Assembly: GCA_041486365.1 (NCBI GenBank)
Contig: JBGPLH010000032.1
Span: 1-17,012 of the forward strand
Length of the DNA stretch: 17,012 nt
Source: JBGPLH01 sp041486365 [NCBI: Thermodesulfobacteriota bacterium]
GTDB lineage: Bacteria > JAUYMQ01
Direction of reading: 5' to 3'
Both the position numbers and the translations under genes were made by a program. Positions 1,017 to 13,799 of the stretch are shown here, one piece after another (positions within the stretch are counted from its first letter, which is position 1; each line of letters opens with the position of its first letter). The notes beneath the pieces are model-generated. The model ran no database searches. It was given only the letters and a program-made list of their open reading frames with translations, and had not been told where the DNA came from.

Positions 1017-1994
1017 GTGAAAACCGTCTTTCAGGACAAGGTCATCCTCCTCACCGGCGGGACCGGCTCCTTCGGCCGGGCCTTCACCCGCGCCCTCGTC
1101 CGGGACCACGCCTTCCGGGCCCTTCGCATCCTCTCCCGGGACGAGCTGAAACAGAGCGAAATGCGGGCCGAGTTCAAGGACGAGCGGCTGCGCTTCCTCC
1201 TCGGCGACGTCCGCGACCGGGACCGGCTCCATCGCGCCATGACGGGCGTCCACATCGTCGTGCACGCGGCCGCGCTCAAGCAGATCCCGGCCTGCGAGTA
1301 CAACCCCTTCGAGGCGGTGAAGACCAACATCCTCGGCGCGCAGAACATCCTCGAGACCGCCATCGACGCCGGCGTCGAGAAGGTGATGGCGCTGTCCACC
1401 GACAAGGCCGTGAACCCGGTGAACCTCTACGGCGCCACGAAGCTGTGCGCCGAGAAGATCGTGATCCAGGGGAACGCCTACACGGGCGGCAGGGGCCCGC
1501 TGATGTCCTGCGTCCGCTACGGCAACGTGGTCGGCAGTCGCGGCTCGGTGATCCCGCTCTTCCGCGAGCAGCGCAAGACCGGCGTGCTCACCATCACCGA
1601 CCCGCGCATGACGCGATTCTGGATCACGCTCGAGCAGGCGGTCGACTTCGTCTCGGGCTGCATCTCCCAGATGCACGGCGGCGAGGTGTTCGTCCCGATC
1701 CTGCCGAGCATGCGGGTCACGGACCTCGCGCGCGCCATGGCGCCCGACTGCCAGATCCGGGAGATCGGGATCCGGCCCGGCGAGAAGCTGCACGAGGTGA
1801 TGGTGACGGAGGACGAGGCGCGGCACACGCTGCAGTTCGACGAGCTCTTCGTCATCGAGCCCGAGCATCCCTGGTGGAAGCGCGAGAAGTGGAAGGGCGG
1901 CAAGCCGCTTCCCGACGGTTTCCGCTACTCAAGCGACAACAACACCGACTGGCTCGACGTGGATCGGCTTCGCAGGATGATAGGCGAAGGCTGA
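1017..1994 (+). CDS. pseB: UDP-N-acetylglucosamine 4,6-dehydratase (inverting), PseB/FlaA1 type
   Basis: First step of pseudaminic-type sugar synthesis: converts UDP-GlcNAc to the UDP-2-acetamido-2,6-dideoxy-beta-L-arabino-4-hexulose intermediate (family knowledge). The 325 residues are the usual length for PseB. It shows the extended-SDR nucleotide-binding loop TGGTGSFG (13-20), GDVRDRDRL (63-71), HAAALKQIP (83-91) and the catalytic stretch LSTDKAVNPVNLYGATK (126-142), with T128-D129-K130, Y138 and K142 matching the FlaA1 active site. The C terminus IEPEHPWW is typical of the family. The start is a GTG with AAGGAG five bases upstream. It leads the operon and stops one base before pseC, which is its usual partner. 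Retaining-type dehydratases such as PglF are much longer membrane proteins, so they are ruled out by size. Confidence 0.95.
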   Translation: MKTVFQDKVILLTGGTGSFGRAFTRALVRDHAFRALRILSRDELKQSEMRAEFKDERLRFLLGDVRDRDRLHRAMTGVHIVVHAAALKQIPACEYNPFEAVKTNILGAQNILETAIDAGVEKVMALSTDKAVNPVNLYGATKLCAEKIVIQGNAYTGGRGPLMSCVRYGNVVGSRGSVIPLFREQRKTGVLTITDPRMTRFWITLEQAVDFVSGCISQMHGGEVFVPILPSMRVTDLARAMAPDCQIREIGIRPGEKLHEVMVTEDEARHTLQFDELFVIEPEHPWWKREKWKGGKPLPDGFRYSSDNNTDWLDVDRLRRMIGEG

Positions 1995-1995
1995 G

Positions 1996-3177
1996 ATGCC
2001 CCGCGATCGGCGCCACGCTCCCATCCCCTACGGTCATCACTGGATCGGCGAGGAGGACATCGCGGCCGTCGCCGCGGCGCTGCGGGCTGACTGGATCACC
2101 CAGGGCCCGACGGGCGAGCGTTTTGAGCAGGCCATCGCGGCCGTGACCGGGGCGCGTCACGCGGTGGCCTTCTCCAGCGGCACCGCGGCGCTGCATGCCG
2201 CCTGCTTCGCCGCGGGGATCGGCCCGGGCGACGAGGTGGTGACCACGCCGCTCTCCTTCGTGGCAAGCGCCAACTGCGCGCTCTACATGGGCGGCCGCCC
2301 GGTCTTCGCGGACGTGAGCCCCGACACGGGAAACCTCGATCCCGATCACGCCGCGCGCGCCATCACGCCCCGCACGAAGGCGCTCCTTCCGGTGGACTAT
2401 GCGGGGCACCCCGCGGACCTCGATGCCTTCCGCGCGCTGGCGCGGGAGCGGGGGCTCCTCCTCATCGAGGACGCGTCCCATGCCATCGGCGCCAGGCTTC
2501 ACGGCCGCCCCATCGGCGCCATTGCCGATCTCACGACGTTCTCCTTCCACCCGGTGAAGACGATCACGACGGGCGAGGGGGGGGCGGTCACGACGGACGA
2601 CGACGCGCGCGCGCGCGCCCTGCGCCTTTTCCGGTCCCACGGGATCACGAAGGCGCCGGAGGATCTCATCGGGGACGATCCGGAGCGGGGACCCTGGTAC
2701 TACGAGATGCAGGCGCTCGGCTACAATTACCGGATCACGGATTTCCAGTGCGCCCTCGGGCTCACCCAGATCGCCAAGCTCGACCGCTTCCTCGCGCGGC
2801 GCCGCGCCATCGTCGCGCGCTACGACGAGACCTTCGGCGCCGATCCCGCGCTCCGGATCCCGGCCCTGCGGCCGGGGGCCGAGCCGGCCTGGCACCTCTA
2901 CCCGCTGCGCATCCGGGCGGAGCGCCTTCGCGCCGGGCGGCGGGCGGTGTTCGAGCGGCTGCGCGAGCGGGGACTCGGCGTGCAGGTGCACTACATCCCG
3001 ACGCCGCTGCAGCCTTACTACCGGAAGAATTTCGGGCACGCGCCGGGCGATTTCCCGAACGCGGAGGCCTACTACGCGGGGGAGATCTCGATCCCGCTCT
3101 ACCCGAGGATGAGCGACGAGGACGTCGGGGACGTGATCGCCATCGTGACGGAAGCGATCGACGAGGTGCGCGCGTGA
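1996..3177 (+). CDS. pseC: UDP-4-amino-4,6-dideoxy-N-acetyl-beta-L-altrosamine transaminase, PseC type
   Basis: PLP-dependent DegT/DnrJ/EryC1 sugar aminotransferase; in the pathway it adds the 4-amino group to the PseB product using glutamate as donor (family knowledge). It has 393 residues, typical for PseC. Visible: YGHHWIGEEDI near the N terminus, VAFSSGTAALH (58-68), VTTPLSFVASANC (82-94), IEDASHAIGA (157-166), and TFSFHPVKTITTGEGGAV (181-198), where K188 is the predicted PLP Schiff-base lysine; the FHPVK and TTGEGG context is the one usual in PseC. LGYNYRITDFQCALG and VHYIPTPLQPYYRKNFG follow. The ATG starts one base after the pseB stop, with AAGG upstream, and the 3' end overlaps the next gene as GTGA. 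SpsC-like transaminases are close relatives, but the adjacent pseB favours PseC. Confidence 0.93.
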   Translation: MPRDRRHAPIPYGHHWIGEEDIAAVAAALRADWITQGPTGERFEQAIAAVTGARHAVAFSSGTAALHAACFAAGIGPGDEVVTTPLSFVASANCALYMGGRPVFADVSPDTGNLDPDHAARAITPRTKALLPVDYAGHPADLDAFRALARERGLLLIEDASHAIGARLHGRPIGAIADLTTFSFHPVKTITTGEGGAVTTDDDARARALRLFRSHGITKAPEDLIGDDPERGPWYYEMQALGYNYRITDFQCALGLTQIAKLDRFLARRRAIVARYDETFGADPALRIPALRPGAEPAWHLYPLRIRAERLRAGRRAVFERLRERGLGVQVHYIPTPLQPYYRKNFGHAPGDFPNAEAYYAGEISIPLYPRMSDEDVGDVIAIVTEAIDEVRA

Positions 3178-3884
3178 CGATCGAGATACCCGGCGAGGCG
3201 TACTACACCGAGCGCATCGTCCCTTTCAACGAATCGGCCAAGGGACGTGGCGAGATCGAGGAGGTGCTGGCGCTCCTCCGGCAGGCCGGCGTGCGGGGGC
3301 GCGTGCTCGACGCCGGGTGCGGCCCGGGGCTCAACGTGGCGCGCATGCGCGAGGCGGAGCCCTCCTGGTCCGTGACCGGTGCGGACTACTCGCCCGCCGG
3401 CGTCGGGATCGCCGCGCGGCGGGCCGGCGGCGCCTTCCTGAACGCCGACGCCCATCACCTGTGCTTTCCCGACGGGATCTTCGCCGGCGTGATCATGACC
3501 CACGCGATCGGCCACGTGGCCGACCCGGCGCGGGTGCTCGGCGAGCTGGCCCGCGTGCTCCGCCCCGGCGGCGCCCTCGTGCTCACCACGCCCAACCGCC
3601 TGTACGTGGAGGTCTACCGCGTCTTCAACGAGCGCGGGCTGATCCCCTACCGGCGCGACACGACCGTGCTCCGCTACTACGACGCCTCCGAGCTCGAGGC
3701 GGCGCTCCAGGCCGCGGGTTTCGCGGTGAAGTCGGTCCGGATCTTCGGCAGCCATCCCGCGCTCGAGCGGCGCCTCGTCGACATGAACCTTCTCCCGCCG
3801 GACGTGCGCGTCGACGATGATGCCCGGCGGGAGCGCATCATCGCCCTCGCGGTCAAGGAGCGCGGACCGGACTCCGTGCTCTGA
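3174..3884 (+). CDS. Class I SAM-dependent methyltransferase
   Basis: A 236-residue Methyltransf_11-type protein. The SAM-binding motif I is VLDAGCGPGLNV (44-55), with the acidic motif II region VTGADYS (67-73), then LNADAHHLCFPDG (89-101), MTHAIGHVADP (108-118) and the post-motif LARVLRPGGALVLTTPN (125-141). The GTG start at 3174 overlaps the pseC stop codon (GTGA), which implies translational coupling; an in-frame ATG at 2748 also exists but would bury most of the gene inside pseC, so it is rejected. The position between pseC and a carbamoyltransferase suggests methylation of the operon's sugar or an intermediate, on O or N; the acceptor cannot be read from sequence. A short duplication sits at its stop codon (3874-3911). 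Confidence 0.85.
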   Translation: MTIEIPGEAYYTERIVPFNESAKGRGEIEEVLALLRQAGVRGRVLDAGCGPGLNVARMREAEPSWSVTGADYSPAGVGIAARRAGGAFLNADAHHLCFPDGIFAGVIMTHAIGHVADPARVLGELARVLRPGGALVLTTPNRLYVEVYRVFNERGLIPYRRDTTVLRYYDASELEAALQAAGFAVKSVRIFGSHPALERRLVDMNLLPPDVRVDDDARRERIIALAVKERGPDSVL

Positions 3885-3911
3885 AAGACGCCCGCGCGCC
3901 GTGCTCTAAAG
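3874..3911 (+). repeat. Short direct duplication at a stop codon
   Basis: CCGTGCTCTGAAAG (3874-3887), which contains the methyltransferase stop TGA, recurs 25 bp downstream as CCGTGCTCTAAAG (3899-3911), carrying TAA in the equivalent place. The second copy supplies the AAAGGA ribosome binding site of the carbamoyltransferase gene. Confidence 0.6.
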
Positions 3912-3919
3912 GATCTCGC

Positions 3920-5617
3920 ATGATCGTCCTCGGAATCACCAACGCATTCGACAGCGGCGCCTCCCTCACCATCGACGGGAGGACGGTGGCCGCGGCCAAC
4001 GAGGAGCGCTTCACCCGGCGCAAGCAGGACGACTCCTTCCCCTGGCGCTCCATCGAGTACGTGCTCTCCGCGGGGGGCGTCCGGGCCTCCGAGATGGACG
4101 CGGTCACCTACGGGTGGGGGCGCGATTTCGACGAGCACAAGATCCTCCCCGCCCTTTCCCAGCGGGTGATCCGCGCCGTGCGGCAGGAGCCCGATTCGGC
4201 CGACGTCGTCATGGCGCGGATCCGCGTGGAGCTCGAGCGCGACCAGGTGCGCCGGGACGAGATGGCGAACATCGCCCGGGAGAACGGATGGGCGGACAAG
4301 CTCCACGTCTACGACCACCATTACTCGCACGCGGGGAGCGCCTACTTCGGGAGCCCCTTCGACCGCGCGCTCGTGTTCACCGGGGACGCGCGGGGCGACT
4401 TCCGGAGCGCCACGGTGCACCTGGGCGAGGGGGACCGGCTCCTCGAGCTCGACTGGCGCTCGTCCTTCGACAGCATGGGGTTCTACTACTCGATCATCAC
4501 CTTCCTGCTCGGGATGCGCCCCGTGCGGCACGAGGGGAAGGTGACGGGGCTGGCGGCCTACGGCGACCCCGAGAAGTGCATCCACGTCATGCGCCAGATG
4601 ATCGGGTTCACGGAGAACACGATCTACGCCAACGTCGGGCGCATGTTCAAGCCGTTCTTCACCGATCCGCCCCCGGCGCTCCGGGAGGCCCTCTCCCACT
4701 ACTCGAAGGAGGACGTGGCAGCGGCCTGCCAGCAGCACCTGGAGGACGTGATCCTCGCCTACGTCCGCCGCTTCCTCGACGAGCAGAAGGCCGCGGGCAC
4801 CCCCGTGGAGAACATCTGCCTCGCGGGCGGCCTCTACGGCAACGTGAAGCTCAACCAGCGGATCTTCGCGCTTCCGGGCGTCCGGAACGTCTTCGTCTAC
4901 CCGAACATGGGCGACGGCGGGCTGTGCGTGGGGAGCACGCTCAACTGGCTCGCCGAGAACGGGCACAAGATCCAGCGGCCGATCGACACGATGTACCTCG
5001 GCCCCTCCTTCACCGACGAGGAGATCAAGCAGGCGATCGACGCCCACGGGGTCCCCCACCGCCGCCTGAGGAACAAGGTGCAGGAGACGGTGGATCTGCT
5101 CGCGCGCGGGAAGGTGGTCGGCTGGTTCCAGGGACGGATGGAGTTCGGGCCGCGGGCGCTCGGATCGCGGAGCATCCTCGTCCACCCGAAGGACCCGACG
5201 GTGAACGACTGGCTCAACAAGCGGCTGCACCGGACGGAGTTCATGCCCTTCGCGCCGGCCACGACGTCGGCGCTGGCGCCCCGCTGCTACGTCGGCTGGC
5301 GGGAGGATCACCTCGCGAGCCGCTACATGACGGTCTGTTACGACTGCACGCCCGAGTTCAAGGAGAACTCGCCGGCCACGGTCCACGTGGACGGCACGGC
5401 GCGCCCGCAGGTGGTCTTCCGGGAGGACAACCCGGACTACCACGACGTGATCGAGGGCTTCCACCGGAAGACCGGGAACCTCTCGGTGATCAACACCTCC
5501 TTCAACGAGCATGAGGAGCCCATCGTCTGCTACCCGGACGACGCCGTCCGCTCGTACCTTGGCAACAACGTCGACTGCCTCGTGATCGGAAACTGGTTCG
5601 TCGGGAAGGAGGATTGA
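3920..5617 (+). CDS. NodU/CmcH/TobZ-type carbamoyltransferase
   Basis: Transfers a carbamoyl group from carbamoyl phosphate through carbamoyl-AMP to a hydroxyl of a sugar or natural product (family knowledge, TobZ/NodU). The 565 residues match the two-domain layout. The N-terminal Kae1-like domain opens MIVLGITNAFDSGASL (1-16) with NEERFTRRKQD (27-37). The metal site is YDHHYSHAGSAYF (131-143), with H133, H134 and H137. EGKVTGLAAYG (205-215), NICLAGGLYGNVKLN (298-312) and YPNMGDGGLCVGS (327-339) follow. The YrdC-like C-terminal domain carries EFGPRALGSRSILVHP (408-423), then FMPFAPA and a late VINTSFNEHEEPIV. The start ATG has AAAGGA seven bases upstream. In this setting a carbamoylated nonulosonate or a precursor of it is the likely product; the acceptor position is unknown. 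Confidence 0.93.
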   Translation: MIVLGITNAFDSGASLTIDGRTVAAANEERFTRRKQDDSFPWRSIEYVLSAGGVRASEMDAVTYGWGRDFDEHKILPALSQRVIRAVRQEPDSADVVMARIRVELERDQVRRDEMANIARENGWADKLHVYDHHYSHAGSAYFGSPFDRALVFTGDARGDFRSATVHLGEGDRLLELDWRSSFDSMGFYYSIITFLLGMRPVRHEGKVTGLAAYGDPEKCIHVMRQMIGFTENTIYANVGRMFKPFFTDPPPALREALSHYSKEDVAAACQQHLEDVILAYVRRFLDEQKAAGTPVENICLAGGLYGNVKLNQRIFALPGVRNVFVYPNMGDGGLCVGSTLNWLAENGHKIQRPIDTMYLGPSFTDEEIKQAIDAHGVPHRRLRNKVQETVDLLARGKVVGWFQGRMEFGPRALGSRSILVHPKDPTVNDWLNKRLHRTEFMPFAPATTSALAPRCYVGWREDHLASRYMTVCYDCTPEFKENSPATVHVDGTARPQVVFREDNPDYHDVIEGFHRKTGNLSVINTSFNEHEEPIVCYPDDAVRSYLGNNVDCLVIGNWFVGKED

Positions 5618-5621
5618 CGTC

Positions 5622-6677
5622 GTGCTTCGCCCCGTGGTCCAGGTGGGAGGTAAGTCGATCGGCGACGGGCATCCGTTCTTCGTGATCGCCGAGGCCTCCT
5701 CCAACCACAACCGCGACATGAAGACCGCGCTGGGCCTGATCGACGCGGCCGCGGCCGCAGGCGCCGACGCGGTGAAGTTCCAGGCCTTTACGGCGGACAA
5801 GATCGTCGCGCGCATGCGCGAGAAGCATCCCTACATCGAGCATATGTTCCCCCACGCGGGAAGCATGCACGAGGTCTACGCCTCGATGGAGCTCCCGCGG
5901 GAATGGCTCAAGGATCTGAAGGCGTACAGCGACGAGCGGGGCCTGATCTTCCTGTGCACCCCCTTCGACGAGGAGGCGGTGGATCTTCTCGAGTCGCTGG
6001 GAATGGCCGCCTACAAGATCGCCTCCTACGAGCTCTGGCACCTCCCGCTGATCCGCCACGCGGCGAGGACGGGCAAGCCGCTGCTGATCTCCACCGGCAT
6101 GGGCAACCTCCAGGCGATCGAGGAGGCGCTCGGCGCCGTCGCGGCCGAGGGGAACGAGCAGGCCGCCCTCTTCCATTGCGCGATCAACTACCCGCCGCCC
6201 TTCACCGAGCTGAACCTCCGGGCGATCCGCACGATGAAGACGGCCTTCGGCGTCCCGGTGGGCTACAGCGATCACTCGACGGGCATCACGGCCGCCATCG
6301 CCACGGTCGCCCTCGGCGGGAACCTCTTCGAGAAGCACTTCACCCTCTCGGCGTCCATGCCCGGCCCGGATCACCCCTTCTCGATCGAGCCCGAGGGGCT
6401 GGCGGCGCTCGTGCGCGGGGTACGCGAGTGCGAGCAGGCGCTCGGATCGCCGATCAAGCGGATGCTCGAGAGCGAGCGGGCCGGCTACCTGATGGGCCGC
6501 CGGTCGATCTTCGCGGCGGCGGATATCCCGGCCGGCGCGCGGATCACACGCGAGATGCTCGCGATCCTGCGGCCGGGGACGGGGCTGGAGCCGAAGCACC
6601 TGGACAAGGTGATCGGGCGCCGCGCGGCCACGGACATCCGCGCCCAGGATCCGATCACCTGGGAGAAGATCGCGTGA
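5622..6677 (+). CDS. pseI: Pseudaminic acid synthase / NeuB family, canonical copy
   Basis: Condenses a six-carbon N-acylated sugar with phosphoenolpyruvate to give a nonulosonic acid (family knowledge). The 351 residues make a NeuB TIM barrel plus a C-terminal SAF (antifreeze-like) domain. Visible: FFVIAEASSNHNRD (19-32) with E24; ADAVKFQAFTADK (48-60) with K52; FLCTPFDEEAVDLLE (110-124); YKIASYEL (131-138) with K132 and E137; LISTGM (155-160); LFHCAINYPPP (183-193); GYSDHSTG (214-221) with H218; FEKHFTL (236-242) with H239. H218 and H239 match the metal-binding histidines of known NeuB. The SAF domain runs from about 288 with RRSIFAAADIPAGARIT. The GTG start has AAGGAGG nine bases upstream. 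HCAINYPP and the pseB/pseC context favour PseI over true sialic-acid NeuB. A duplicate-start region follows its stop. Confidence 0.9.
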   Translation: MLRPVVQVGGKSIGDGHPFFVIAEASSNHNRDMKTALGLIDAAAAAGADAVKFQAFTADKIVARMREKHPYIEHMFPHAGSMHEVYASMELPREWLKDLKAYSDERGLIFLCTPFDEEAVDLLESLGMAAYKIASYELWHLPLIRHAARTGKPLLISTGMGNLQAIEEALGAVAAEGNEQAALFHCAINYPPPFTELNLRAIRTMKTAFGVPVGYSDHSTGITAAIATVALGGNLFEKHFTLSASMPGPDHPFSIEPEGLAALVRGVRECEQALGSPIKRMLESERAGYLMGRRSIFAAADIPAGARITREMLAILRPGTGLEPKHLDKVIGRRAATDIRAQDPITWEKIA

Positions 6678-6727
6678 AGCCCGTCACTCTCGCCGGAGGT
6701 CCCCCGCGAAGCGGGGGCCGACTGTGA
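6674..6727 (+). other. Vestigial start of the second NeuB gene (17-codon remnant ORF)
   Basis: A GTG overlapping the pseI stop (GTGA) opens a 17-residue frame, MKPVTLAGGPPRSGGRL, ending at TGA 6725-6727. Its first six residues and upstream DNA closely match the true gene start 76 bp later (MKPVSLDGKP at 6750). The hairpin repeat (6701-6724) makes up the rest of the remnant. This looks like the old translationally coupled start, cut off by the repeat; that history is inference. Confidence 0.5.
6701..6724 (+). repeat. Hairpin repeat copy between the two NeuB genes
   Basis: CCCCCGC (6701-6707), loop GAA, GCGGGGG (6711-6717) form a 7-bp GC stem, followed by CCGACTGTGAT. The stem and GGGGGCCGAC tail match the repeat in the wecB 5' end (reverse strand) and the GGCCGACTGT tail matches 864-873. 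No T-run follows, so it is not an intrinsic terminator; it might still attenuate transcription or protect RNA. Confidence 0.6.
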
Positions 6728-6749
6728 TAGTGCAGGGAGAGAAGGTGCT

Positions 6750-7760
6750 ATGAAGCCCGTCAGCCTCGACGGCAAGCCCGTCGGTCCCGGAGAGCCGATC
6801 TACGTCATCGCCGAGGGGGCCAACAACCACGCCGGCGATCACAAGATCGCGATGCAGATGGTCGAGGCCGCGGCCACGACGGGCGCCGACGCGGTGAAGT
6901 TTCAGTGCATGGACGCCGACGAGTTCGCCGTGCCCGCCTACGAGTGGTACAAGGTCTACCAGCAGCTGAAGTTCTCGAAGCAGCAGTGGAAGGATCTCAA
7001 GGATCGCGCCGCGGAGCTGGGGATCTCCTTCTGTGTCGACGTGCTCGACCCGCCGAGCGTGGATCTCCACGTGGACATCGGCACTCCCTTCTTCCGCCTG
7101 CACGCGGGCGACCTCGTGAACCCCTTCCTGCTGAGATACGCGGCGCAGGCGGACCGGCCCCTCCTCCTGCACACCGGCATGACCACGATCGGCGAGATCG
7201 AGTTCGCGATCGACTGCATCACGGCCGCGGGGAACGAGCAGATCGTGCTCCTCCACGGCTTCCAGGACCATCCGTCCCTGCACGCCGACATGCACCTGCG
7301 CGTGATCCGCACCTACCAGGAGATCTTCGACCGCCCCGTGGGCCTGAACGATCACACGACCGACACCGTGGCCGCACTGGCGGGCCTGGGCGCGGGCGCC
7401 ATGGCCATCGAGAAGCACTTCACGACGGACCGGGCCGCGAAGCGATACGACTGGGTTTCGGCGCTCGAGCCGCAGGAGTTCCGGAAGATGGTCGAGGATC
7501 TGCGCAGCGCGGAGACCTGCATGGGCAACGCGCTCCGCGAGCCCTCGGCGAAGGAGCTGGCCTGGCGGGAGACCACCCGCAAGTCGCTCGTAGCCCGGGA
7601 GGACCTCCCCGCCGGGACGATCCTCACCGAGGAGAACGTCGCGATGAAGCGGCGCACCCCGCTGGGGATCGGGCCGCTGGACGCCCCGTCGATCTTCGGA
7701 AAGCGCCTGGTCCGGGCCGTGAAGCGCAACGATCTTCTCACCCTCGAGGATCTGGCCTGA
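6750..7760 (+). CDS. Second NeuB-family synthase, divergent active site
   Basis: A 336-residue NeuB-like TIM barrel plus SAF domain. Conserved: YVIAEGANNHAGD (18-30) with E22; ADAVKFQ (46-52) with K50; HTGM (141-144); GLNDHTTD (198-205) with H202; IEKHFT (220-225) with H223; and the SAF domain from about 276, RKSLVAREDLPAGTILT. Compared with the canonical copy just upstream, YKIASYEL is FRLHAGDL (115-122: Lys to Arg, Glu to Asp) and LFHCAINYPP is LLHGFQDHPS (167-176). The metal and PEP-side core is thus kept while the substrate side differs, so a different six-carbon substrate or another function is likely. SpsE-like enzymes are the nearest comparison: the order NeuB-type, SpsF-type, PseG/SpsG-type is that of Bacillus spsE-spsF-spsG. 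The ATG has GAGAAGG upstream. Confidence 0.85.
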   Translation: MKPVSLDGKPVGPGEPIYVIAEGANNHAGDHKIAMQMVEAAATTGADAVKFQCMDADEFAVPAYEWYKVYQQLKFSKQQWKDLKDRAAELGISFCVDVLDPPSVDLHVDIGTPFFRLHAGDLVNPFLLRYAAQADRPLLLHTGMTTIGEIEFAIDCITAAGNEQIVLLHGFQDHPSLHADMHLRVIRTYQEIFDRPVGLNDHTTDTVAALAGLGAGAMAIEKHFTTDRAAKRYDWVSALEPQEFRKMVEDLRSAETCMGNALREPSAKELAWRETTRKSLVAREDLPAGTILTEENVAMKRRTPLGIGPLDAPSIFGKRLVRAVKRNDLLTLEDLA

Positions 7761-7800
7761 CATGCCCCCGCCTGACACGCCCTCGCCTGTCGTGAGCCCG
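7756..7800 (+). repeat. Three imperfect 15-bp tandem repeats at a gene junction
   Basis: CCTGACATGCCCCCG, CCTGACACGCCCTCG and CCTGTCGTGAGCCCG follow one another without gaps. The first contains the stop of the preceding gene and the ATG of the next; the other two extend that gene's N terminus by ten Pro-rich codons before the conserved domain starts. Confidence 0.6.
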
Positions 7801-8589
7801 CGGGTCGTCGCCGTGATCACCGCCCGCATGGGATCGGATCGCCTCCCCGGAAAGGTCCTGATGGATCTGGCCGGCAAGCCCGTGACCACGCACATGGTGG
7901 AGCGCCTCCGCCACGTGCGGGGCATCGACGGGGTCTGGCTCGGCACCTCCGTGAGCGCGAACAACGCCCCTTTGGTCGCCCTGGCCCGGGAGCTGGGGAT
8001 CGAGGTGTACCAGGGAAGCGAGGAGGACGTGCTGGAGCGGCACGTGACGATCGCCGACCGGAGCGGGGCTGATCACGTGGTGCGCGTCACGGCCGACTGC
8101 CCGCTGTTCGACATCGAGCTGGCCTCTCGCATGGTGGCCCACCACCGCGGGGCGAAGGCCGATTTCACCTACGTCCCGGCGGTGCTCTCCGTCGGCGTCC
8201 TCGTCGAGGTGATCAGCCGCCGCGCGCTCCATGTGGTCCACGAGCGCTACCAGGGCGAGCTGATCACCGTGCCGATCAAGGAGCACCCCGAGGATTTCCA
8301 TATCGAGCCCTTCGGAGTCCAGCAGGGACTGGACCCGCGCCTGATCCGGCCTGAGTTCCGTCTCACGCTCGACGAGGCGGCCGACTACGAGCTGCTGAAA
8401 CGCATCTACGGCGCGCTCTACCGTCAGGGGAAGCCCGTCGACGTCATCGAGGCCCTCGCGTTCCTCGACGCGCACCCCGAGGTAGCCGCCATCAACGCCC
8501 AGGTGCGGCAGAAGACCGGGAACCTCTACGCCCAGGAGCTCGACGCCCGCGTGCTCGCCGCCCGGCGCGACGGGCCGGCGGCGGAATGA
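7762..8589 (+). CDS. spsF: SpsF-type cytidylyltransferase (CMP-nonulosonate activation candidate)
   Basis: A 275-residue nucleotidyltransferase of the acylneuraminate cytidylyltransferase superfamily. The signature is ITARMGSDRLPGKVL (19-33), where true PseF/NeuA enzymes have the GGSKxxxxKN form; this RMGSxRLPGKxL version is that of Bacillus SpsF. RVTADCPLFD (108-117) carries the metal-binding Asp, and RLTLDEAADYELLKRIY (200-216) is the usual SpsF C-terminal element. The likely role is CTP-dependent activation of the nonulosonic acid, since no other cytidylyltransferase is in the window; this is inference. The first 14 residues are Pro-rich and come from a 15-bp tandem repeat, so a start at GTG 7792 is possible, though no Shine-Dalgarno supports it. 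The gene begins one base after the previous stop and overlaps the next as ATGA. Confidence 0.85.
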   Translation: MPPPDTPSPVVSPRVVAVITARMGSDRLPGKVLMDLAGKPVTTHMVERLRHVRGIDGVWLGTSVSANNAPLVALARELGIEVYQGSEEDVLERHVTIADRSGADHVVRVTADCPLFDIELASRMVAHHRGAKADFTYVPAVLSVGVLVEVISRRALHVVHERYQGELITVPIKEHPEDFHIEPFGVQQGLDPRLIRPEFRLTLDEAADYELLKRIYGALYRQGKPVDVIEALAFLDAHPEVAAINAQVRQKTGNLYAQELDARVLAARRDGPAAE

Positions 8590-9650
8590 GCCTCCTCGTC
8601 CGGGCCGACGGGAGCCGCGCCATCGGCCTCGGCCACCTCATGCGCTGCCACGCCCTGGCCCAGGAGGCGCGGCGGCGGGGCCACCCGGTCTACTTCCTCA
8701 CGCGCCCCCTCGACCACACGGGCATCGCGAAACTCCGGTCCCTGGGCGAGAGCTCCATCCCCCTAGTCGGCCCGGAGGACCCTCCCTCCGACCTCACGGC
8801 CACGCTGGGCGCGCTCCGACTCGCCTCTCGCGGCGGACTGCCCCGGCGCCCGATCCTCGTCACCGATCACAACGACCTCGACGCCGCCTGGCTCCGCGGC
8901 GCGCGAGAGGCGGGCCCCGTCGTGGTGAGCCTGAACGACCTCCCCCGCATCCGCTACGCCTCCCACCTCGTCGTGAACGGGAACGTCGGCGCCCAGAAGC
9001 TCGCCTACGAGACGGAGCCGGACGTGCGCCTCCTCCTCGGGCCCGCCTACTTCTTCTTCCGCGACGAGTTCCTCTCTCCGGGAGCAGCCCGGACGGATCA
9101 GCCGGAGGCCGCGCGGCGGATCGTCGTGACGCTCGGCGCGGGTGATGCGGGCAACGTGACGCAGCGGGCGCTGGAGGCGCTGGAGGGGTCGGCGGCGACG
9201 CTCGACGTCACGCTCGTCGCCGGGGCCGCCTACGGCCACGTCGCGGCACTCGAGGCCGCCGCGGCACGCTCGCGGCACCGCGTGCGCATCGAACGGGATC
9301 CGCCGGGCCCCGCCCGCGTCTTCGCGGCGGCGGATCTCGCCCTGTGCGCGGGAGGCTCGACCGCCTACGAGATGGCCATCCTCGGCGTGCCGTCCGTCGT
9401 CCTGATCCTCTCCGACACGCAGGCGGACGCCGCGCGGGCGCTGGACGACGAGGGCATAGCATTGTGCGCGGGAGAGCCGGACGCTGGACGGATCCTGGAC
9501 GCGGTCGAGCTCCTCCGGAGGGACGGGAAGCGCCGCCGGGATATGGCGGCGCGGGGCCGCGCGTGTTTCGACGGGCTCGGGCGCATGCGGGTGATCCGGG
9601 AAGCGGAGGCACTCGCGGGCGGGCCGCGCGAGGGAGAGGCCCTTGCCTGA
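8586..9650 (+). CDS. pseG: UDP-2,4-diacetamido-2,4,6-trideoxy-L-altropyranose hydrolase, PseG/SpsG type
   Basis: Removes UDP from the 2,4-diamino-trideoxy sugar so that the free hexose can enter the PEP condensation (family knowledge). The 354 residues form a GT-B-like fold. RADGSRAIGLGHLMRC (6-21) contains H17, the catalytic histidine position in Campylobacter PseG. LVTDHNDLDAAWLR (91-104), LLGPAYFFFRDEF (150-162), VTLGAGDAGNVT (181-192) and LCAGGSTAYEMAILGVPSV (253-271), the nucleotide-binding element, follow. The ATG overlaps the previous stop (ATGA). The last 8 nt overlap the TTG start of the next gene. Some related proteins fuse a GNAT acetyltransferase domain here; none is visible, so the PseH step is unassigned. 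Confidence 0.9.
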   Translation: MSLLVRADGSRAIGLGHLMRCHALAQEARRRGHPVYFLTRPLDHTGIAKLRSLGESSIPLVGPEDPPSDLTATLGALRLASRGGLPRRPILVTDHNDLDAAWLRGAREAGPVVVSLNDLPRIRYASHLVVNGNVGAQKLAYETEPDVRLLLGPAYFFFRDEFLSPGAARTDQPEAARRIVVTLGAGDAGNVTQRALEALEGSAATLDVTLVAGAAYGHVAALEAAAARSRHRVRIERDPPGPARVFAAADLALCAGGSTAYEMAILGVPSVVLILSDTQADAARALDDEGIALCAGEPDAGRILDAVELLRRDGKRRRDMAARGRACFDGLGRMRVIREAEALAGGPREGEALA

Positions 9651-11082
9651 CGTCGATGACATCGACGCCGTCGTCGCCGAATACGACCGGACCTTCGGCG
9701 GGATCCTCGTCGAGGGAATCGACCTGGCCGCGGCCAATCGCCTCTCCTTCTACGGCATGATCCACGCCCGCACGGGCTGCGCGTCCGCGTCCCGCCGATC
9801 ACGCTGGCTCGACGCGTTGAACGACCAGGCGGTCCTCCTGCGAGACAGGCTGCGCCGGACCGCCCCCTCGTCTCCGCCGCTTCCCGCCCCCGGGCCGCCC
9901 CGGACGCTCTTCTTCTTCGAAGCCATGAACCCCTCCGTCCATGCCACCCTCCGCCCGGCTCTCGAGGAGTTCTCGCCCGCCGAGGCCCGCGTCGCTTTCG
10001 TCCAGGGCGCTCACGTCCCGGAGGGAAGCGCTCACGAGACGCTGGTGGTGAAAGACTGGATCCCGCGGGGGATGGCGCACCGCTGCCCGGATCTCCCCGC
10101 CGCCCTCCGCACCCGGCAGCGCGAGGCGCGGATGGCGATCCTGCGCCGGGAATCGCTCCGCACGTGGCTCCTCCGGATGTCCCTTCGCACCGCCGACGCC
10201 GCGCGCGCGTTCACGAGAATCTACGACGCCTTTCCGACCACGGTCCTCGTCACGGCCTCCGACACGTCGTTCTGGGGATACTGCGCCACGGTGGAGGCAC
10301 GCCGGCGGGGAATCCCCTCCGTGACTCTTCAGCACGGAATGATGGTGGGCGCGGCAGGGTATGTGCCCGTCGTCTCGTCCCTCATCGCCGCCTGGGGCGA
10401 AGCCAGCGCCCGCTGGTTGCGGGAGAGGGGCGTCCCTCCGGAGAAGATCGTCGTCACCGGGGCGCCGCGCCTGGACGGGATAGTCAGAGGGACGCGGTGT
10501 CCCAGGGAGGTCCTTGCGGCCGGCCTCGGCGTGGATCCCGGGCGTCGATGGGTGGTCCTCGCGACCAACCAGATCCCCTTCGAGCGGAACGCGGCGCTCC
10601 TCGCGACCGCGCGCAAGGGGGTGATAGACTGGGGCGAGCCCGCGATCCTCCTCGTGAAGCTCCATCCCTCGGAGGATCCGGCTCCCTATCGGTCGGCCAT
10701 CGAGGGCGATCCGGACGTGGTGGTGGTTCCCCATGGCAAGGTGGATCTCTATGACTTGCTCGCCGCGGCCGACGCCGTCCTCACCTTCCACTCCAGCGTG
10801 GGCCTGGAGGCCATGGCCTTCGATCGTCCCGTGGTGAGTCTCGAAGCCTTCGGCGAGGAGAACCCTCTGCCCTATGCCCGGACCGGCGCGGCCGCAGCCG
10901 CGCGCTCGACGGAGGAGCTCGCCCGCGCACTTCGGGAAGACGTGGCGGACGGGGTGAGGACACTGGAGCGCCGGTCCGCGCGCGCAAGGTACGTGCGCGA
11001 CAACCTTCTGGCGACTGACGGGAAGAGCAGCCGGCGGGTCCGGGATCTGGTGGTGTCCCTCGCGCCGGGGAGACGCGCGTGA
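9643..11082 (+). CDS. GT-B glycosyltransferase, copy 1 (candidate nonulosonate transferase)
   Basis: A 479-residue cytoplasmic protein with no signal peptide. It opens MPDVDDIDAVVAEYDRTFGG. Motifs: LVTASDTSFWGYCATVEA (202-219), TLQHGMM (228-234), VTGAPRLDG (271-279), LVKLHPSEDP (337-346), TFHSSVGLEAMAFDRPVVSL (381-400) and FGEENPLPY (403-411). The LQHG, KLHP and HSSVGLEA elements resemble GT-B polymerases and transferases such as CDP-glycerol glycerophosphotransferases and capsule enzymes; HP and S-S motifs are also shared by bacterial sialyltransferases, which suits a CMP-nonulosonate donor. Donor and acceptor are inferred, not shown. The start is TTG with GGGAGAGG upstream, overlapping the pseG stop by 8 nt; the paralog at 11761 starts the same way, which supports this choice. 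Confidence 0.75.
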   Translation: MPDVDDIDAVVAEYDRTFGGILVEGIDLAAANRLSFYGMIHARTGCASASRRSRWLDALNDQAVLLRDRLRRTAPSSPPLPAPGPPRTLFFFEAMNPSVHATLRPALEEFSPAEARVAFVQGAHVPEGSAHETLVVKDWIPRGMAHRCPDLPAALRTRQREARMAILRRESLRTWLLRMSLRTADAARAFTRIYDAFPTTVLVTASDTSFWGYCATVEARRRGIPSVTLQHGMMVGAAGYVPVVSSLIAAWGEASARWLRERGVPPEKIVVTGAPRLDGIVRGTRCPREVLAAGLGVDPGRRWVVLATNQIPFERNAALLATARKGVIDWGEPAILLVKLHPSEDPAPYRSAIEGDPDVVVVPHGKVDLYDLLAAADAVLTFHSSVGLEAMAFDRPVVSLEAFGEENPLPYARTGAAAAARSTEELARALREDVADGVRTLERRSARARYVRDNLLATDGKSSRRVRDLVVSLAPGRRA

Positions 11083-11768
11083 GCCTTCGCCGCCGAATCC
11101 TCTTCCGCCTGGGGCGGGCGCTGGACCGCTCGGGCATCCCCGCCTTCGCGAACTCGGTCCTCGGCGGCCTGTACACCATGTACAAGGCCAAGGATCTGGG
11201 CGCCTTCGGGAAGGGAAGCACCATCCGACCCTTCTGCATCTTCCAGGGGGCGCGTCACATCCGGATTGGTTCGAGCACCCACGTCCGCGCGGGATGCCAT
11301 CTTCAGGCCGTCGAGTCCTACGCCGGCGCGCCGGAGGGAGGCGCGCCCCGAGGGACGCCCGAGATTCTCGTCGGGGACAGGACGCTGATCGGGCGGTTCT
11401 GCCATATCACCGCGGTTCGCCGAATCGAGATCGGTCAGGGCGTGTTGTTCGGCGAGGGCGTGTTGATCGCCGATCACGATCACGGCTTCGAGGATCCGGC
11501 GGCGGCGCCCCGCGATCAGCATCTGTCTCCAGGGCGGCCCATCCGGATCGGCGACGACTGCTGGCTGGGGGATCACGCCGCGATCCTGGCGGGTGTCACG
11601 CTGGGAAAGCATGCGATCGTGGGCGCCAACGCCACCGTCACCCGGGACGTCCCGGATTACACGGTCGTCGCCGGCAACCCCGCGCGCCCCGTATCCCGGT
11701 ACGATCCCGATCGGAAGATCTGGGTCGCCCTCGCCGGGGTGGGAAGCGCGGGAGAAGATCTTGCCTGA
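11079..11768 (+). CDS. Left-handed beta-helix acyltransferase (WbbJ/LacA-like), copy 1
   Basis: A 229-residue hexapeptide-repeat protein that probably O- or N-acetylates a sugar from acetyl-CoA. An amphipathic N-terminal stretch (1-50) precedes a coil of hexapeptide turns: GARHIRIGSSTHVRAGC, ILVGDRTLIGRFC, IEIGQGVLFGEGVLIADHDHGFED (with the catalytic-loop signature DHDHGFED at 132-139), then IRIGDDCWLGDHAAILAGVTLGKHAIVGANATVTRDVPDYTVVAGNPAR toward the end, in the usual order. The GTG start overlaps the glycosyltransferase stop (GTGA), with GGGGAGA upstream. Pairing with that transferase implies action on the same glycan. N4-acetylation of the PseC product (the missing PseH role) is an alternative. 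Motif runs quoted here are read in pieces of the one coil. Confidence 0.85.
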   Translation: MSLRRRILFRLGRALDRSGIPAFANSVLGGLYTMYKAKDLGAFGKGSTIRPFCIFQGARHIRIGSSTHVRAGCHLQAVESYAGAPEGGAPRGTPEILVGDRTLIGRFCHITAVRRIEIGQGVLFGEGVLIADHDHGFEDPAAAPRDQHLSPGRPIRIGDDCWLGDHAAILAGVTLGKHAIVGANATVTRDVPDYTVVAGNPARPVSRYDPDRKIWVALAGVGSAGEDLA

Positions 11769-13188
11769 CATCGACGCCTACGTCGCAGACTACGACCGGT
11801 TCTTCGGCGGTATCGACGTGGAGGGAATCGATCTCGCCTCGGCCAACCGGACGTCCTTCTATATCTCGATCCTGTCGGGGGAGCGGTTCCTGACAGGCTC
11901 TCTCCTCGCGCGGGCGCGGGAGACGCTGCTCGCCCACGCGGTCTTCGCGCGCGAGTTCTTCCGGAAGGAAGCCGCCCGGCGGGATCCACGCCCTGCCCGA
12001 TCGCCGAAGGTGCTCTTCTTCGTGGAGGGGGTGAACCCCGCGGTGGAGGGCACGATCCGGAGCGTCCTCGCGCAGTTCCCCGCCGACGAGGCGCGCGTGG
12101 CGCTGGCCTACGCGGAGGGGGAGCGGTTCCCCGGGCAGTACGATGTGGTGATCCTGGGCGAGTTTCTCGCGCGCGGCGCCCCCTGGTCGCTCGCCACGCT
12201 CCCGGGGGCGATTCTCGCCCGCCAGCGCCGGGCCGGTCTCCCGGTGCTCCGCCGCGCGTCGTTCCGCGCGTGGCTCCTGCGCCACTCGCTCCGCACGGCG
12301 GCGGCGGCCCACGCCCTCCCGCGACTTTACGACGCCTGGCCCGCGACCGTGCTCGTCACTGCCTCCGACACCGGGTTCTGGGGCCGCTGCGCCACGCTGG
12401 AAGCGAAGCGCCGGGGAATCGCGACGCTCACGCTCCAGCACGGGATGATGGCCGATGCGGCGGGTTACGTGCCCGTCGTCTCCGATCGCTTCGGCGCATG
12501 GGGCGAGGCAGGCGCGCGCTGGTTGCGAGAGCGCGGCGTCCCGGCGGAGAAGATCGCCGTCGTCGGAGCACCACGCCTGCCGGATCCGGACTCGGCGCCC
12601 CGAAGGGATCGCACCGCGCTCGCGGCCGGCCTGGCCATCGATCCGGCGCGCCGCTGGGTGATGCTGGCGACGAATCCGATCTCCCTGGGAAAGAACGCGG
12701 CGATGCTCGAGGTGGCGCGGGCGGGGGTGCGCGCCTGGGAGGCGAAGGCGATCCTCGTTCTGAAATTGCACCCGTCGGAGGACCCGGCGGCCTACCGCGC
12801 GATTCTGGGCTCCGATCCGAACGTCGTCCTGGTTCCGCACGGCGAGGCGCCGTTGTATGATCTGCTCGGAGCGGTCGACGCAGTGCTCACGTTCCACTCG
12901 AGCGTCGGCCTGGAGGGGATGCTCTTCGATCGCCCGATCGTGAGCCTCGAGCCCTTCGGGGAAGAGAACCCGCTCTCCTACGGGCGCGAGGGCGCCGCGG
13001 CCGTCGCCCGCGGGGCGGACGAGCTGGCTCGGGCGCTCGCCGCGGACGTGCCGCCGGGCTCGAACGCCGGGGCCCGCCGCGCCGCCCGCGAGCGTTACCT
13101 GAAGGACAACCTCGACGCCGTCGGGGAGAAGAGCGCGGCCCAGGTCCGGGCCCTGATCCGGGTGCTGGCGTCGGAGAAGACCCCTTGA
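11761..13188 (+). CDS. GT-B glycosyltransferase, copy 2 (candidate nonulosonate transferase)
   Basis: A 475-residue paralog of the protein at 9643. It begins MPDIDAYVADYDRFFGGIDV and continues VEGIDLASANRTSFY, matching copy 1. Motifs: LVTASDTGFWGRCATLEA (198-215), TLQHGMM (224-230), VVGAPRLP (267-274), LKLHPSEDP (334-342), TFHSSVGLEGMLFDRPIVSL (377-396) and FGEENPLSY (399-407). A longer frame runs upstream to 11593, but the TTG at 11761, with GGGAGAAG before it and the same 8-nt overlap with the preceding stop as copy 1, is the better start. The residues after the first 40 (40-130) and the tail differ most between copies, so the acceptor specificity may have split. The 3' end overlaps the next gene as TTGA. 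Confidence 0.75.
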   Translation: MPDIDAYVADYDRFFGGIDVEGIDLASANRTSFYISILSGERFLTGSLLARARETLLAHAVFAREFFRKEAARRDPRPARSPKVLFFVEGVNPAVEGTIRSVLAQFPADEARVALAYAEGERFPGQYDVVILGEFLARGAPWSLATLPGAILARQRRAGLPVLRRASFRAWLLRHSLRTAAAAHALPRLYDAWPATVLVTASDTGFWGRCATLEAKRRGIATLTLQHGMMADAAGYVPVVSDRFGAWGEAGARWLRERGVPAEKIAVVGAPRLPDPDSAPRRDRTALAAGLAIDPARRWVMLATNPISLGKNAAMLEVARAGVRAWEAKAILVLKLHPSEDPAAYRAILGSDPNVVLVPHGEAPLYDLLGAVDAVLTFHSSVGLEGMLFDRPIVSLEPFGEENPLSYGREGAAAVARGADELARALAADVPPGSNAGARRAARERYLKDNLDAVGEKSAAQVRALIRVLASEKTP

Positions 13189-13799
13189 GCCGCCGACGAT
13201 CGCTACTCTCCCTGATACGCATCCGCTTACGGTCCGCTTTCCTCCGCGCGCGCCTGGCGCGCATGGGCCAGGCCACGACGTTCCAGGCTCCCGGCCCATG
13301 GATCGTCGGGGGCGGGCGAATCGCACTGGGGAACGCCGTCTTCGGGCGTCCCTTCGTCCGTCTCGAAGCCATCACCTCTTCCCGCTCCCCGGCCCGGGGG
13401 CCGATCCTCACCGTGGAGGATCGCGCCTACCTGGGCTTCCACGTGTCGGTGTTCGCCACGCGGGGCGTCACGATCGGCCGGGACGTCTATCTCAACGGCC
13501 ACGTGACGATCTACGATCACTACCCGCCACTCGATTCGGAGGACGCGGGCGCGCCCGGACCGGCGGACGAGCGGGTGGGCGAGGTGTCCCTCGGCGATCA
13601 GTCGTGGATCGGCTGGGGCGCCGTCGTGATGCCCGGCGTGCGCATCGGGACCCACAGCGTGCTCGGCGCCAACAGCGTGGCGATCGAGGACGTCCCCGAT
13701 CACTGCGTCGCCGTGGGGAACCCCGCGGTGGTCGTCCGGCGCTACGACGCGCCGTCGAAGCGCTGGGTGAGCGTGGAGCCGGATGGGGGCGGGCCATGA
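13185..13799 (+). CDS. Left-handed beta-helix acyltransferase, copy 2
   Basis: A 204-residue hexapeptide-repeat protein, probably a sugar acetyltransferase. The first 40 residues are basic and amphipathic (MSRRRSLLSLIRIRLRSAFL), as in copy 1. The coil includes GGGRIALGNAVFGRPFVRLE, LTVEDRAYLGFHVSVFA, VTIGRDVYLNGHVTIYDHYP (loop YDHYPPLDSED, 110-120), VSLGDQSWIGWGAVVMPGV, IGTHSVLGANSVAIEDVPDH and AVGNPAVVVRRYD. The catalytic-type His sits in the YDHYP loop, where copy 1 has DHDHGFED. The start is a TTG overlapping the previous stop (TTGA), with GGAGAAG upstream. Its place after the second glycosyltransferase mirrors copy 1, so it probably modifies that transferase's product. Confidence 0.82.
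   Translation: MSRRRSLLSLIRIRLRSAFLRARLARMGQATTFQAPGPWIVGGGRIALGNAVFGRPFVRLEAITSSRSPARGPILTVEDRAYLGFHVSVFATRGVTIGRDVYLNGHVTIYDHYPPLDSEDAGAPGPADERVGEVSLGDQSWIGWGAVVMPGVRIGTHSVLGANSVAIEDVPDHCVAVGNPAVVVRRYDAPSKRWVSVEPDGGGP

What the first reader, a model, noticed from the sequence alone, without database searches (positions are those of the whole stretch)
5622..7760. Adjacent NeuB paralogs, the second with altered active-site residues
The first copy has YKIASYEL and HCAINYPP; the second has FRLHAGDL and HGFQDHPS at the same places, so Lys becomes Arg, Glu becomes Asp, and the substrate-side loop changes, while E22, K50, H202 and H223 are kept. A pair like this could make two different nonulosonic acids in one pathway, act in succession, or form a hetero-oligomer.
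Basis: partly seen in the sequence, partly recalled or inferred. Interest (0 to 1): 0.65.

Follow-up and report, generated by a model that had tools for sequence, protein, structure and literature searches.

The report
NeuB paralog coupled to a cytidylyltransferase
Next to a normal enzyme for sialic-acid-like sugars lies an old, remodelled copy that kept its metal site but changed its phosphoenolpyruvate pocket, and in related loci this copy sits beside or is fused to the likely sugar-activating enzyme, pointing to an undescribed step in the pathway.

Summary
In detail: two adjacent NeuB-fold genes (NeuB1 5622-6677, NeuB2 6750-7760) lie in a pse/sps-type nonulosonic acid (NulO) operon, and NeuB2 carries the reported substitutions. 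The tree does not support a recent duplicate. NeuB2 groups with 14 other "G[FM][QS]-type" NeuBs, 13 from genomes drawn within Bacteroidota and one from an IMG/VR contig, with the motif columns left out. All 15 keep the metal/sugar end (E25, H215, E234, H236, D247; N. meningitidis numbering), have a remodelled PEP end, and lack the loop linked to sugar C4-C6. In 14 of 15 loci the gene is fused to (7) or directly beside (7) an SpsF-like cytidylyltransferase, with a canonical NeuB in the same locus; 8 of 46 distinct canonical-NeuB windows have SpsF nearby. In 5 of 13 genomes that SpsF is the only non-KdsB CTP_transf_3 found. I conclude that NeuB2 forms a module with SpsF in the pathway fed by NeuB1, most likely handling the nine-carbon product before CMP activation. 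A second PEP synthase using another aldose remains the main rival. Chemistry is untested. New variant of a known kind.

The parts
5622..6677 (+). NeuB1: canonical NulO synthase (SpsE/PseI-like), key catalytic residues kept, SAF domain
   Evidence: PF03102 2.7e-87, PF08666 9.2e-13; best solved relative SpsE 1vli 236 bits; residue table
6750..7760 (+). NeuB2: G[FM][QS]-type NeuB paralog; metal/sugar end kept, PEP end remodelled, C4-C6 loop missing, SAF domain present
   Evidence: PF03102 3.1e-54, PF08666 1.4e-9; residue table; tree; AF2 model pLDDT 89.4
6897..6930 (+). KFQ motif (K50, Q52) followed by the short loop where most canonical NeuBs have about 15 more residues (Nm positions near 74)
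   Evidence: alignments
7092..7115 (+). FRLHAGDL motif: R for K129, H at 131, A for S132, D for E134
7254..7277 (+). HGFQDHPS motif: G-F-Q at positions 182-184
7762..8589 (+). SpsF-like cytidylyltransferase, starts directly after the NeuB2 stop; homologs are fused to NeuB2 elsewhere
   Evidence: PF02348 4.4e-18; fusions
1017..1994 (+). PseB, UDP-GlcNAc 4,6-dehydratase (inverting)
   Evidence: TIGR03589 476 bits, cut-off 408
1996..3177 (+). PseC aminotransferase
   Evidence: TIGR03588 482 bits, cut-off 424
3174..3884 (+). SAM methyltransferase
   Evidence: PF13489 3.1e-25
3920..5617 (+). carbamoyltransferase (NodU/CmcH type)
   Evidence: PF16861 1.1e-57, PF02543 3.2e-41
8586..9650 (+). PseG, UDP-sugar hydrolase
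   Evidence: TIGR03590 171 bits, cut-off 154

Best explanation
NeuB2 belongs to an old, divergent NeuB lineage that works as a module with an SpsF-like cytidylyltransferase in the same NulO pathway that NeuB1 feeds. Shown by sequence: the lineage, the kept metal/sugar end, the changed PEP pocket, the lost C4-C6 loop, and the fusions or adjacency to SpsF. Inferred: NeuB1 condenses PEP with the 6-deoxy-diamino-hexose; NeuB2, still metal-dependent but no longer built to bind PEP phosphate, binds the nine-carbon alpha-keto acid (or its open-chain form) in the joined sugar-plus-PEP cavity, acts on its constant C1-C4 end (for example ring opening/mutarotation, epimerisation or a retro-aldol check), and hands it to SpsF for CMP activation.
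For: (a) NeuB2::SpsF fusions, NeuB2 first each time, in 7 loci and direct adjacency in 7 more, of 15; fused and separate states need at least 3 changes on the tree. Control: 9 of 53 canonical-NeuB windows (8 of 46 distinct places) have an SpsF-like gene within about 1.5 kb. (b) Positions listed around PEP in PMC7371886 (section 7): 110 is T/S in 65 of 65 canonical rows and 0 of 15; 131 small (P/A/G) to His in 11 and Gln in 3; 132 S 65/65 to 5/15; 182 C 62/65 to G 15/15; 184 mostly T/S to Q 12/15. Also S154 65/65 to 1/15 and S213 65/65 to 1/15. E25, H215, E234, H236, D247 15/15. (c) The loop the same paper links to C4-C6 specificity is absent in 15/15, and the gene occurs in both pse and leg loci, so it should act on the part the sugars share. 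(d) In 5 of 13 genomes SpsF is the only non-KdsB CTP_transf_3 found, and SpsF divergence tracks NeuB1 (partial r 0.46, p 0.001 for 13 loci, 0.004 for 10), as expected if SpsF activates the NeuB1 product. PMC7439481 (passages): in B. subtilis spsF is not needed to make Leg but is needed for its transfer to the spore surface, and is proposed as the CMP-Leg step; complementation of that mutant failed.
Against: SpsF-like genes also stand beside canonical NeuBs with no G[FM][QS] gene in view, and the passages of PMC7439481 name no second NeuB in B. subtilis, so NeuB2 does not look needed for activation as such. Each of the 15 keeps at least one basic residue of 53/129, which could still hold PEP. 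The window's NeuB2 keeps K53, has Arg at 129, and is the G[FM][QS] row nearest to canonical. NeuB2-SpsF co-divergence is strong with one distance measure (partial 0.59 for 13 loci, 0.41 for 10) but weak with ML rank distances (0.24, p 0.026; 0.13, p 0.20 for 10 loci). The G514 locus has a second CTP_transf_3 gene, and 8 of 13 genomes have other candidates or no SpsF by the gene. G490 has no SpsF in view, at a contig edge. 6ncs, with canonical PEP residues, lacks the same loop, so loop loss alone says little.
Confidence: 0.42

Rival explanations
1. NeuB2 is a second PEP-dependent synthase that takes another, simpler aldose from central metabolism and makes a second ulosonic acid; SpsF activates it (alone or together with the NeuB1 product).
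For: NeuB fold and metal site kept; at least one basic residue of 53/129 kept in 15/15; loss of the C4-C6 loop also fits a smaller aldose; in the G514 locus NeuB2::SpsF and PseI have a second CTP_transf_3 gene, NeuA-like by eye, beside them.
Against: T/S110, S154, S213 and mostly S132, invariant or nearly so in canonical enzymes, are lost. I saw no second sugar pathway in most of the loci listed (ORFs were named only by similarity to window and L051 proteins). In 5 of 13 genomes only one non-KdsB cytidylyltransferase was found.
Confidence: 0.3
2. NeuB2 is a regulatory or structural subunit of NeuB1 (hetero-oligomer), lending its SAF domain or interface.
For: A canonical NeuB lies in the same locus in 14 of 15. 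The R314 column holds Arg in 11 of the 12 rows long enough for a SAF domain (Pfam SAF was tested only for the window). Plain NeuB2-NeuB1 distance correlation 0.37, p 0.003, for 13 loci.
Against: Fused members without a SAF-length stretch exist (L069, G007, G012; NeuB2 parts of 287-304 aa). The partner NeuB1 rows keep K53, K129, S132, S154 and S213; of them only c_G007 and c_G012 differ at 55 and 314. NeuB2-NeuB1 partial correlation given SpsF about 0 or 0.13, p 0.14. A mere scaffold need not keep five metal/sugar residues in 15/15.
Confidence: 0.13
3. NeuB2 is an ordinary synthase isozyme from recent duplication of NeuB1 with altered specificity.
For: The genes are adjacent, same strand, 34% identical; the AU rejection is borderline.
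Against: AU test against win1+win2 as one clade p 0.037; NeuB2 lies on the G[FM][QS] side of a 95/78 branch with motif columns left out.
Confidence: 0.07

Closest known systems
NeuB / PseI / LegI / SpsE NulO synthases (PF03102 + SAF)
   Same: TIM-barrel fold (AF2 model to 1xuu Z 36.8 over 335 residues, rmsd 6.4), SAF domain, metal and sugar-end residues
   Different: PEP-end residues replaced, C4-C6 loop missing, coupled to SpsF; below both NCBIfam equivalog cut-offs (NeuB1 is also below both, by less)
Leptospira borgpetersenii sialic acid synthetase 6ncs
   Same: best fold match (Z 38.8, 2.4 A over 280) and best sequence match among solved chains; also lacks the N74 loop
   Different: 6ncs keeps K129, S132, S154, S213, T110 and the HC..YP motif; the 290-residue chain is too short for a SAF domain
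Bacillus subtilis SpsE-SpsF-SpsG legionaminic acid pathway (PMC7439481, passages)
   Same: SpsF-like cytidylyltransferase and PseG/SpsG-like hydrolase in one pathway with a NeuB
   Different: no second NeuB is named in the passages read
Vibrio sp. B9-25K2 SpsF::aldo-keto reductase (PMC7371886, section 8 read)
   Same: SpsF-like domain in a pse locus, proposed there to replace the missing NeuA
   Different: fused to an aldo-keto reductase, not to a NeuB paralog

Membership tests
NeuB fold family (PF03102) | profile match over the curated cut-off | tested here: met
   184 bits against 22.1
NeuB fold family (PF03102) | fold match to solved NeuB | tested here: met
   Z 36.8-38.8
PEP-dependent NulO synthase (NeuB/PseI/LegI/SpsE) | metal and sugar-end residues E25, H215, E234, H236, D247 | tested here: met
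   all kept
PEP-dependent NulO synthase (NeuB/PseI/LegI/SpsE) | conserved PEP-pocket residues (T/S110, K129, S132, C182) and S154, S213 | tested here: not met
   D, R, A, G, H, N in NeuB2
PEP-dependent NulO synthase (NeuB/PseI/LegI/SpsE) | NCBIfam equivalog cut-offs TIGR03569 / TIGR03586 | tested here: not met
   237 against 400 and 198 against 340 bits; NeuB1 scores 357 and 330, also below
PEP-dependent NulO synthase (NeuB/PseI/LegI/SpsE) | PEP condensation activity | not testable with these tools
   needs enzymology
G[FM][QS]-type NeuB lineage (named here) | G-[FM]-[QS] at 182-184, no N74 loop, altered 110 | tested here: met
G[FM][QS]-type NeuB lineage (named here) | beside or fused to SpsF, canonical NeuB nearby | tested here: met
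   NeuB2 stop 7760, SpsF start 7762, NeuB1 at 5622-6677
G[FM][QS]-type NeuB lineage (named here) | groups with the lineage when motif columns are left out | tested here: met
   95/78 branch, below the starred level; win2 is the member nearest to canonical (97/88 branch)

The most novel reading that the evidence does not exclude
A NeuB-fold metalloenzyme that no longer uses PEP but processes the finished nonulosonic acid at its constant keto-acid end and forms, with SpsF, a bipartite CMP-NulO synthetase used by pse, leg and other NulO loci in bacteria and at least one IMG/VR contig.
Probability: 0.33. Interest if true: 0.75.

Novelty: new variant of a known kind. Interest (0 to 1): 0.58.

Why it matters
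NeuB-type genes are commonly annotated as N-acetylneuraminate or pseudaminic acid synthase (as in the hits), and PMC7371886 (sections 7 and 8 read) predicts NulO products from NeuB sequence and gene content. A second NeuB that is probably not a normal synthase would mislead such predictions and hides an undescribed step between synthesis and CMP activation of sialic-acid-like sugars on bacterial surfaces. The natural fusions give single proteins that can be tested directly.

Tried and rejected
Recent tandem duplication: disfavoured (AU p 0.037 is borderline). Pseudogene or neutral decay: rejected, five metal/sugar residues are kept in 15 of 15 divergent sequences. Fully separate pathways for the two synthases: weakened by the cytidylyltransferase census, not excluded.

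Led nowhere or limited: no whole genome is held for the window, so a second cytidylyltransferase of the window's organism, if any, is unknown. The single genome-contig scan used too narrow a query and gave one canonical NeuB; its genome G001 (Bacteroides oleiciplenus) became the only centre, so apart from L069 the relatives come from draws within that phylum; that G490's contig is foreign is only my impression. Plasmid searches gave hits below 60% identity only; I checked the motifs of four plasmid loci, all canonical. Phage-record searches gave 3 and 2 weak hits, motifs not checked. IMG/VR scans: 3 loci, canonical, with the same match figures, L069 (again as L070), none. The HGFQ DNA pattern had hits in 9 of 395 genomes, 2 of them in NeuB genes. 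Co-divergence tests disagree in strength; I do not lean on them for NeuB2-SpsF. Prevalence: at least 9 of 395 drawn genomes have the type (G164, G228, G170, G007, G012, G125, G071, G278, G364); 60 further hits were read and none is of the type (50, 10), as are 4 more; the remaining matches were not read. The canonical control has 53 loci, 7 of them repeat places (46 distinct), chosen by similarity, 3 from genomes that also carry the type elsewhere. The 65 canonical rows include 2 repeats. A second structure job (fusion, alignment A4) was prepared but not run. Roles of S154 and S213 in phosphate binding are recalled, not read; PMC6795526 (passages) lists S213, T110 and K129 among residues close to the ligand. 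That SpsF joins CMP at C2 is general knowledge of CMP-NulO synthetases.

Full report
The observation. Two NeuB-fold genes follow each other in a 69% GC window: NeuB1 5622-6677 and NeuB2 6750-7760. They lie in a run of same-strand genes for a pseudaminic/sps-type pathway: PseB, PseC, methyltransferase, carbamoyltransferase, NeuB1, NeuB2, SpsF-like cytidylyltransferase (from 7762), PseG, then glycosyltransferase-like and hexapeptide acyltransferase genes.

A lineage, not a recent copy. I gathered relatives from genomes drawn within Bacteroidota, plasmids and IMG/VR. A 56-row tree built without the motif columns puts the 15 on one side of a branch (95/78); the window's NeuB2 is the member nearest to the 41 canonical rows (97/88 separates it, with the canonical rows, from the other 14). 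A tree joining NeuB1 and NeuB2 is disfavoured (AU p 0.037, borderline). Several branches are long and the program warns of joins between them, so the inner order is unsure.

What was kept and what was changed. In 65 canonical rows (63 distinct), including four solved references, K53, K129, S132, S154 and S213 never vary and 110 is T or S. In 50 more aligned canonical hits the same holds but for one S154A. In the 15, E25, H215, E234, H236 and D247 never vary, whereas 110 is never T/S, S154 and S213 remain in 1 of 15 each, S132 in 5, K129 in 9, K53 in 11; 182 is always G, 183 F or M, and 131 is His in 11. PMC7371886 (section 7 read) lists 110, 129, 131, 132, 182 and 184 as surrounding PEP, and positions 70-85 as bearing on C4-C6 of the sugar; the residues around 74 are missing in all 15 (and also in 6ncs and three of the canonical rows shown). 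So the metal end stayed, the PEP end was rebuilt, and the part that tells Pse from Leg precursors is gone. Against a clean loss of PEP binding, each of the 15 still has at least one basic residue at 53 or 129.

The company it keeps. In 7 of 15 loci NeuB2 and SpsF are one ORF, NeuB2 first (G071, G364, G419, G514, G007, G012, IMG/VR L069); in 7 they are neighbours (window, G164, G228, G396, G125, G170 with NeuB2 first; G278 with SpsF first). G490 shows none but lies near a contig start. Fused and unfused states need at least 3 changes on the tree. A canonical NeuB is in the same locus in 14 of 15. Of 53 canonical-NeuB windows (46 distinct places) 9 (8 distinct) have an SpsF-like gene within about 1.5 kb; this control set was chosen by similarity, not at random. 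By similarity to window and L051 proteins the loci are pse-type (window, G170, G071, G364, G419, G514), leg-type (G164, G228, G396, G125, G278) or neither (G007, G012, L069).

One activating enzyme. Over the 13 genomes with the type, G164 and G228 have a single CTP_transf_3 match, the SpsF beside NeuB2; G278, G364 and G419 have that SpsF plus one protein over the KdsB cut-off. So in 5 of 13 the only visible candidate to activate the NeuB1 product is the SpsF tied to NeuB2. The other eight have further candidates (G396 a PseF over its cut-off, near a second canonical NeuB; G514 a second match in the locus; G007, G012, G125, G071 and G170 one or more others) or no SpsF seen by the gene (G490). 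Genomes may be incomplete. Distances of SpsF follow those of NeuB1 (partial r 0.46, p 0.001 for 13 loci, 0.004 for 10). NeuB2 follows SpsF strongly by one measure (partial 0.59 and 0.41) and weakly by another (0.24, p 0.026; 0.13, p 0.20 for 10 loci). NeuB2 and NeuB1 correlate plainly (0.37, p 0.003 for 13 loci; 0.13, p 0.20 for 10) but not once SpsF is held fixed (0.13, p 0.14).

Structure. An AlphaFold2 model of NeuB2 (pLDDT 89.4, six-row alignment) matches 6ncs best (Z 38.8), then NeuB (Z about 37) and PseI (Z 34), a TIM barrel plus, in the last two, a SAF domain. The fold shows kinship, not activity.

Reading. The firm part is that NeuB2 belongs to a lineage coupled to SpsF within a NulO pathway that already has a complete synthase. 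The inferred part is the chemistry. A cavity that once held sugar plus PEP, now without the hydroxyl side chains of the PEP end and without the C4-C6 loop, could hold the nine-carbon product; acting at its common keto-acid end would explain use across pse and leg loci and the tie to SpsF, which by analogy joins CMP at C2. The main rival is a second PEP synthase for a simpler aldose. Searches for such a pair, fusion or second NeuB in the paper library listed nothing that I recognised as describing it, from titles, abstracts and the passages opened; PMC7371886 describes an SpsF::aldo-keto reductase fusion (section 8 read) and strains with two NeuBs of the Neu and Pse pathways (passage), and PMC7439481 (passages) places spsF after Leg synthesis in B. 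subtilis.

Noticed in passing
window 3920-5617 and L097 10768-12465: A carbamoyltransferase (46% identical between the two) sits in both pse loci with NeuB2, suggesting a carbamoylated NulO.
   Followed up: partly
L016 1453-3249 and L102 6813-8612: An opposite fusion exists: an N-terminal SpsF-like part ahead of a canonical (QCTSQYP) NeuB.
   Followed up: partly
L098 8477-10056 and L099 4764-6310: The canonical NeuBs here have a long insert after the first helix, Ser at 314 and Thr at 55, and are followed by a HAD phosphatase-like gene (named by eye), perhaps a phosphorylated-sugar route.
   Followed up: no
L100 6321-8231 and L101 6400-8409: NeuB ORFs of 637 and 670 aa with some 300 residues beyond the stretch that aligns to NeuB plus SAF; nature of the extra part not looked at.
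   Followed up: no
window 9643-11768 and 11776-13799: A glycosyltransferase-like gene followed by a hexapeptide acyltransferase occurs twice in a row; the two glycosyltransferase-like proteins are 56% identical, the acyltransferases 31%, so the first at least looks duplicated.
   Followed up: partly
L134 886-1977: HGMQ-type NeuB in genome G490 with no pse/leg or SpsF gene recognised on its 13.6 kb contig; K53 is Gln.
   Followed up: partly
window 3677-5815, minus strand: A 712-aa antisense ORF over the carbamoyltransferase gene, most likely a by-product of high GC.
   Followed up: no
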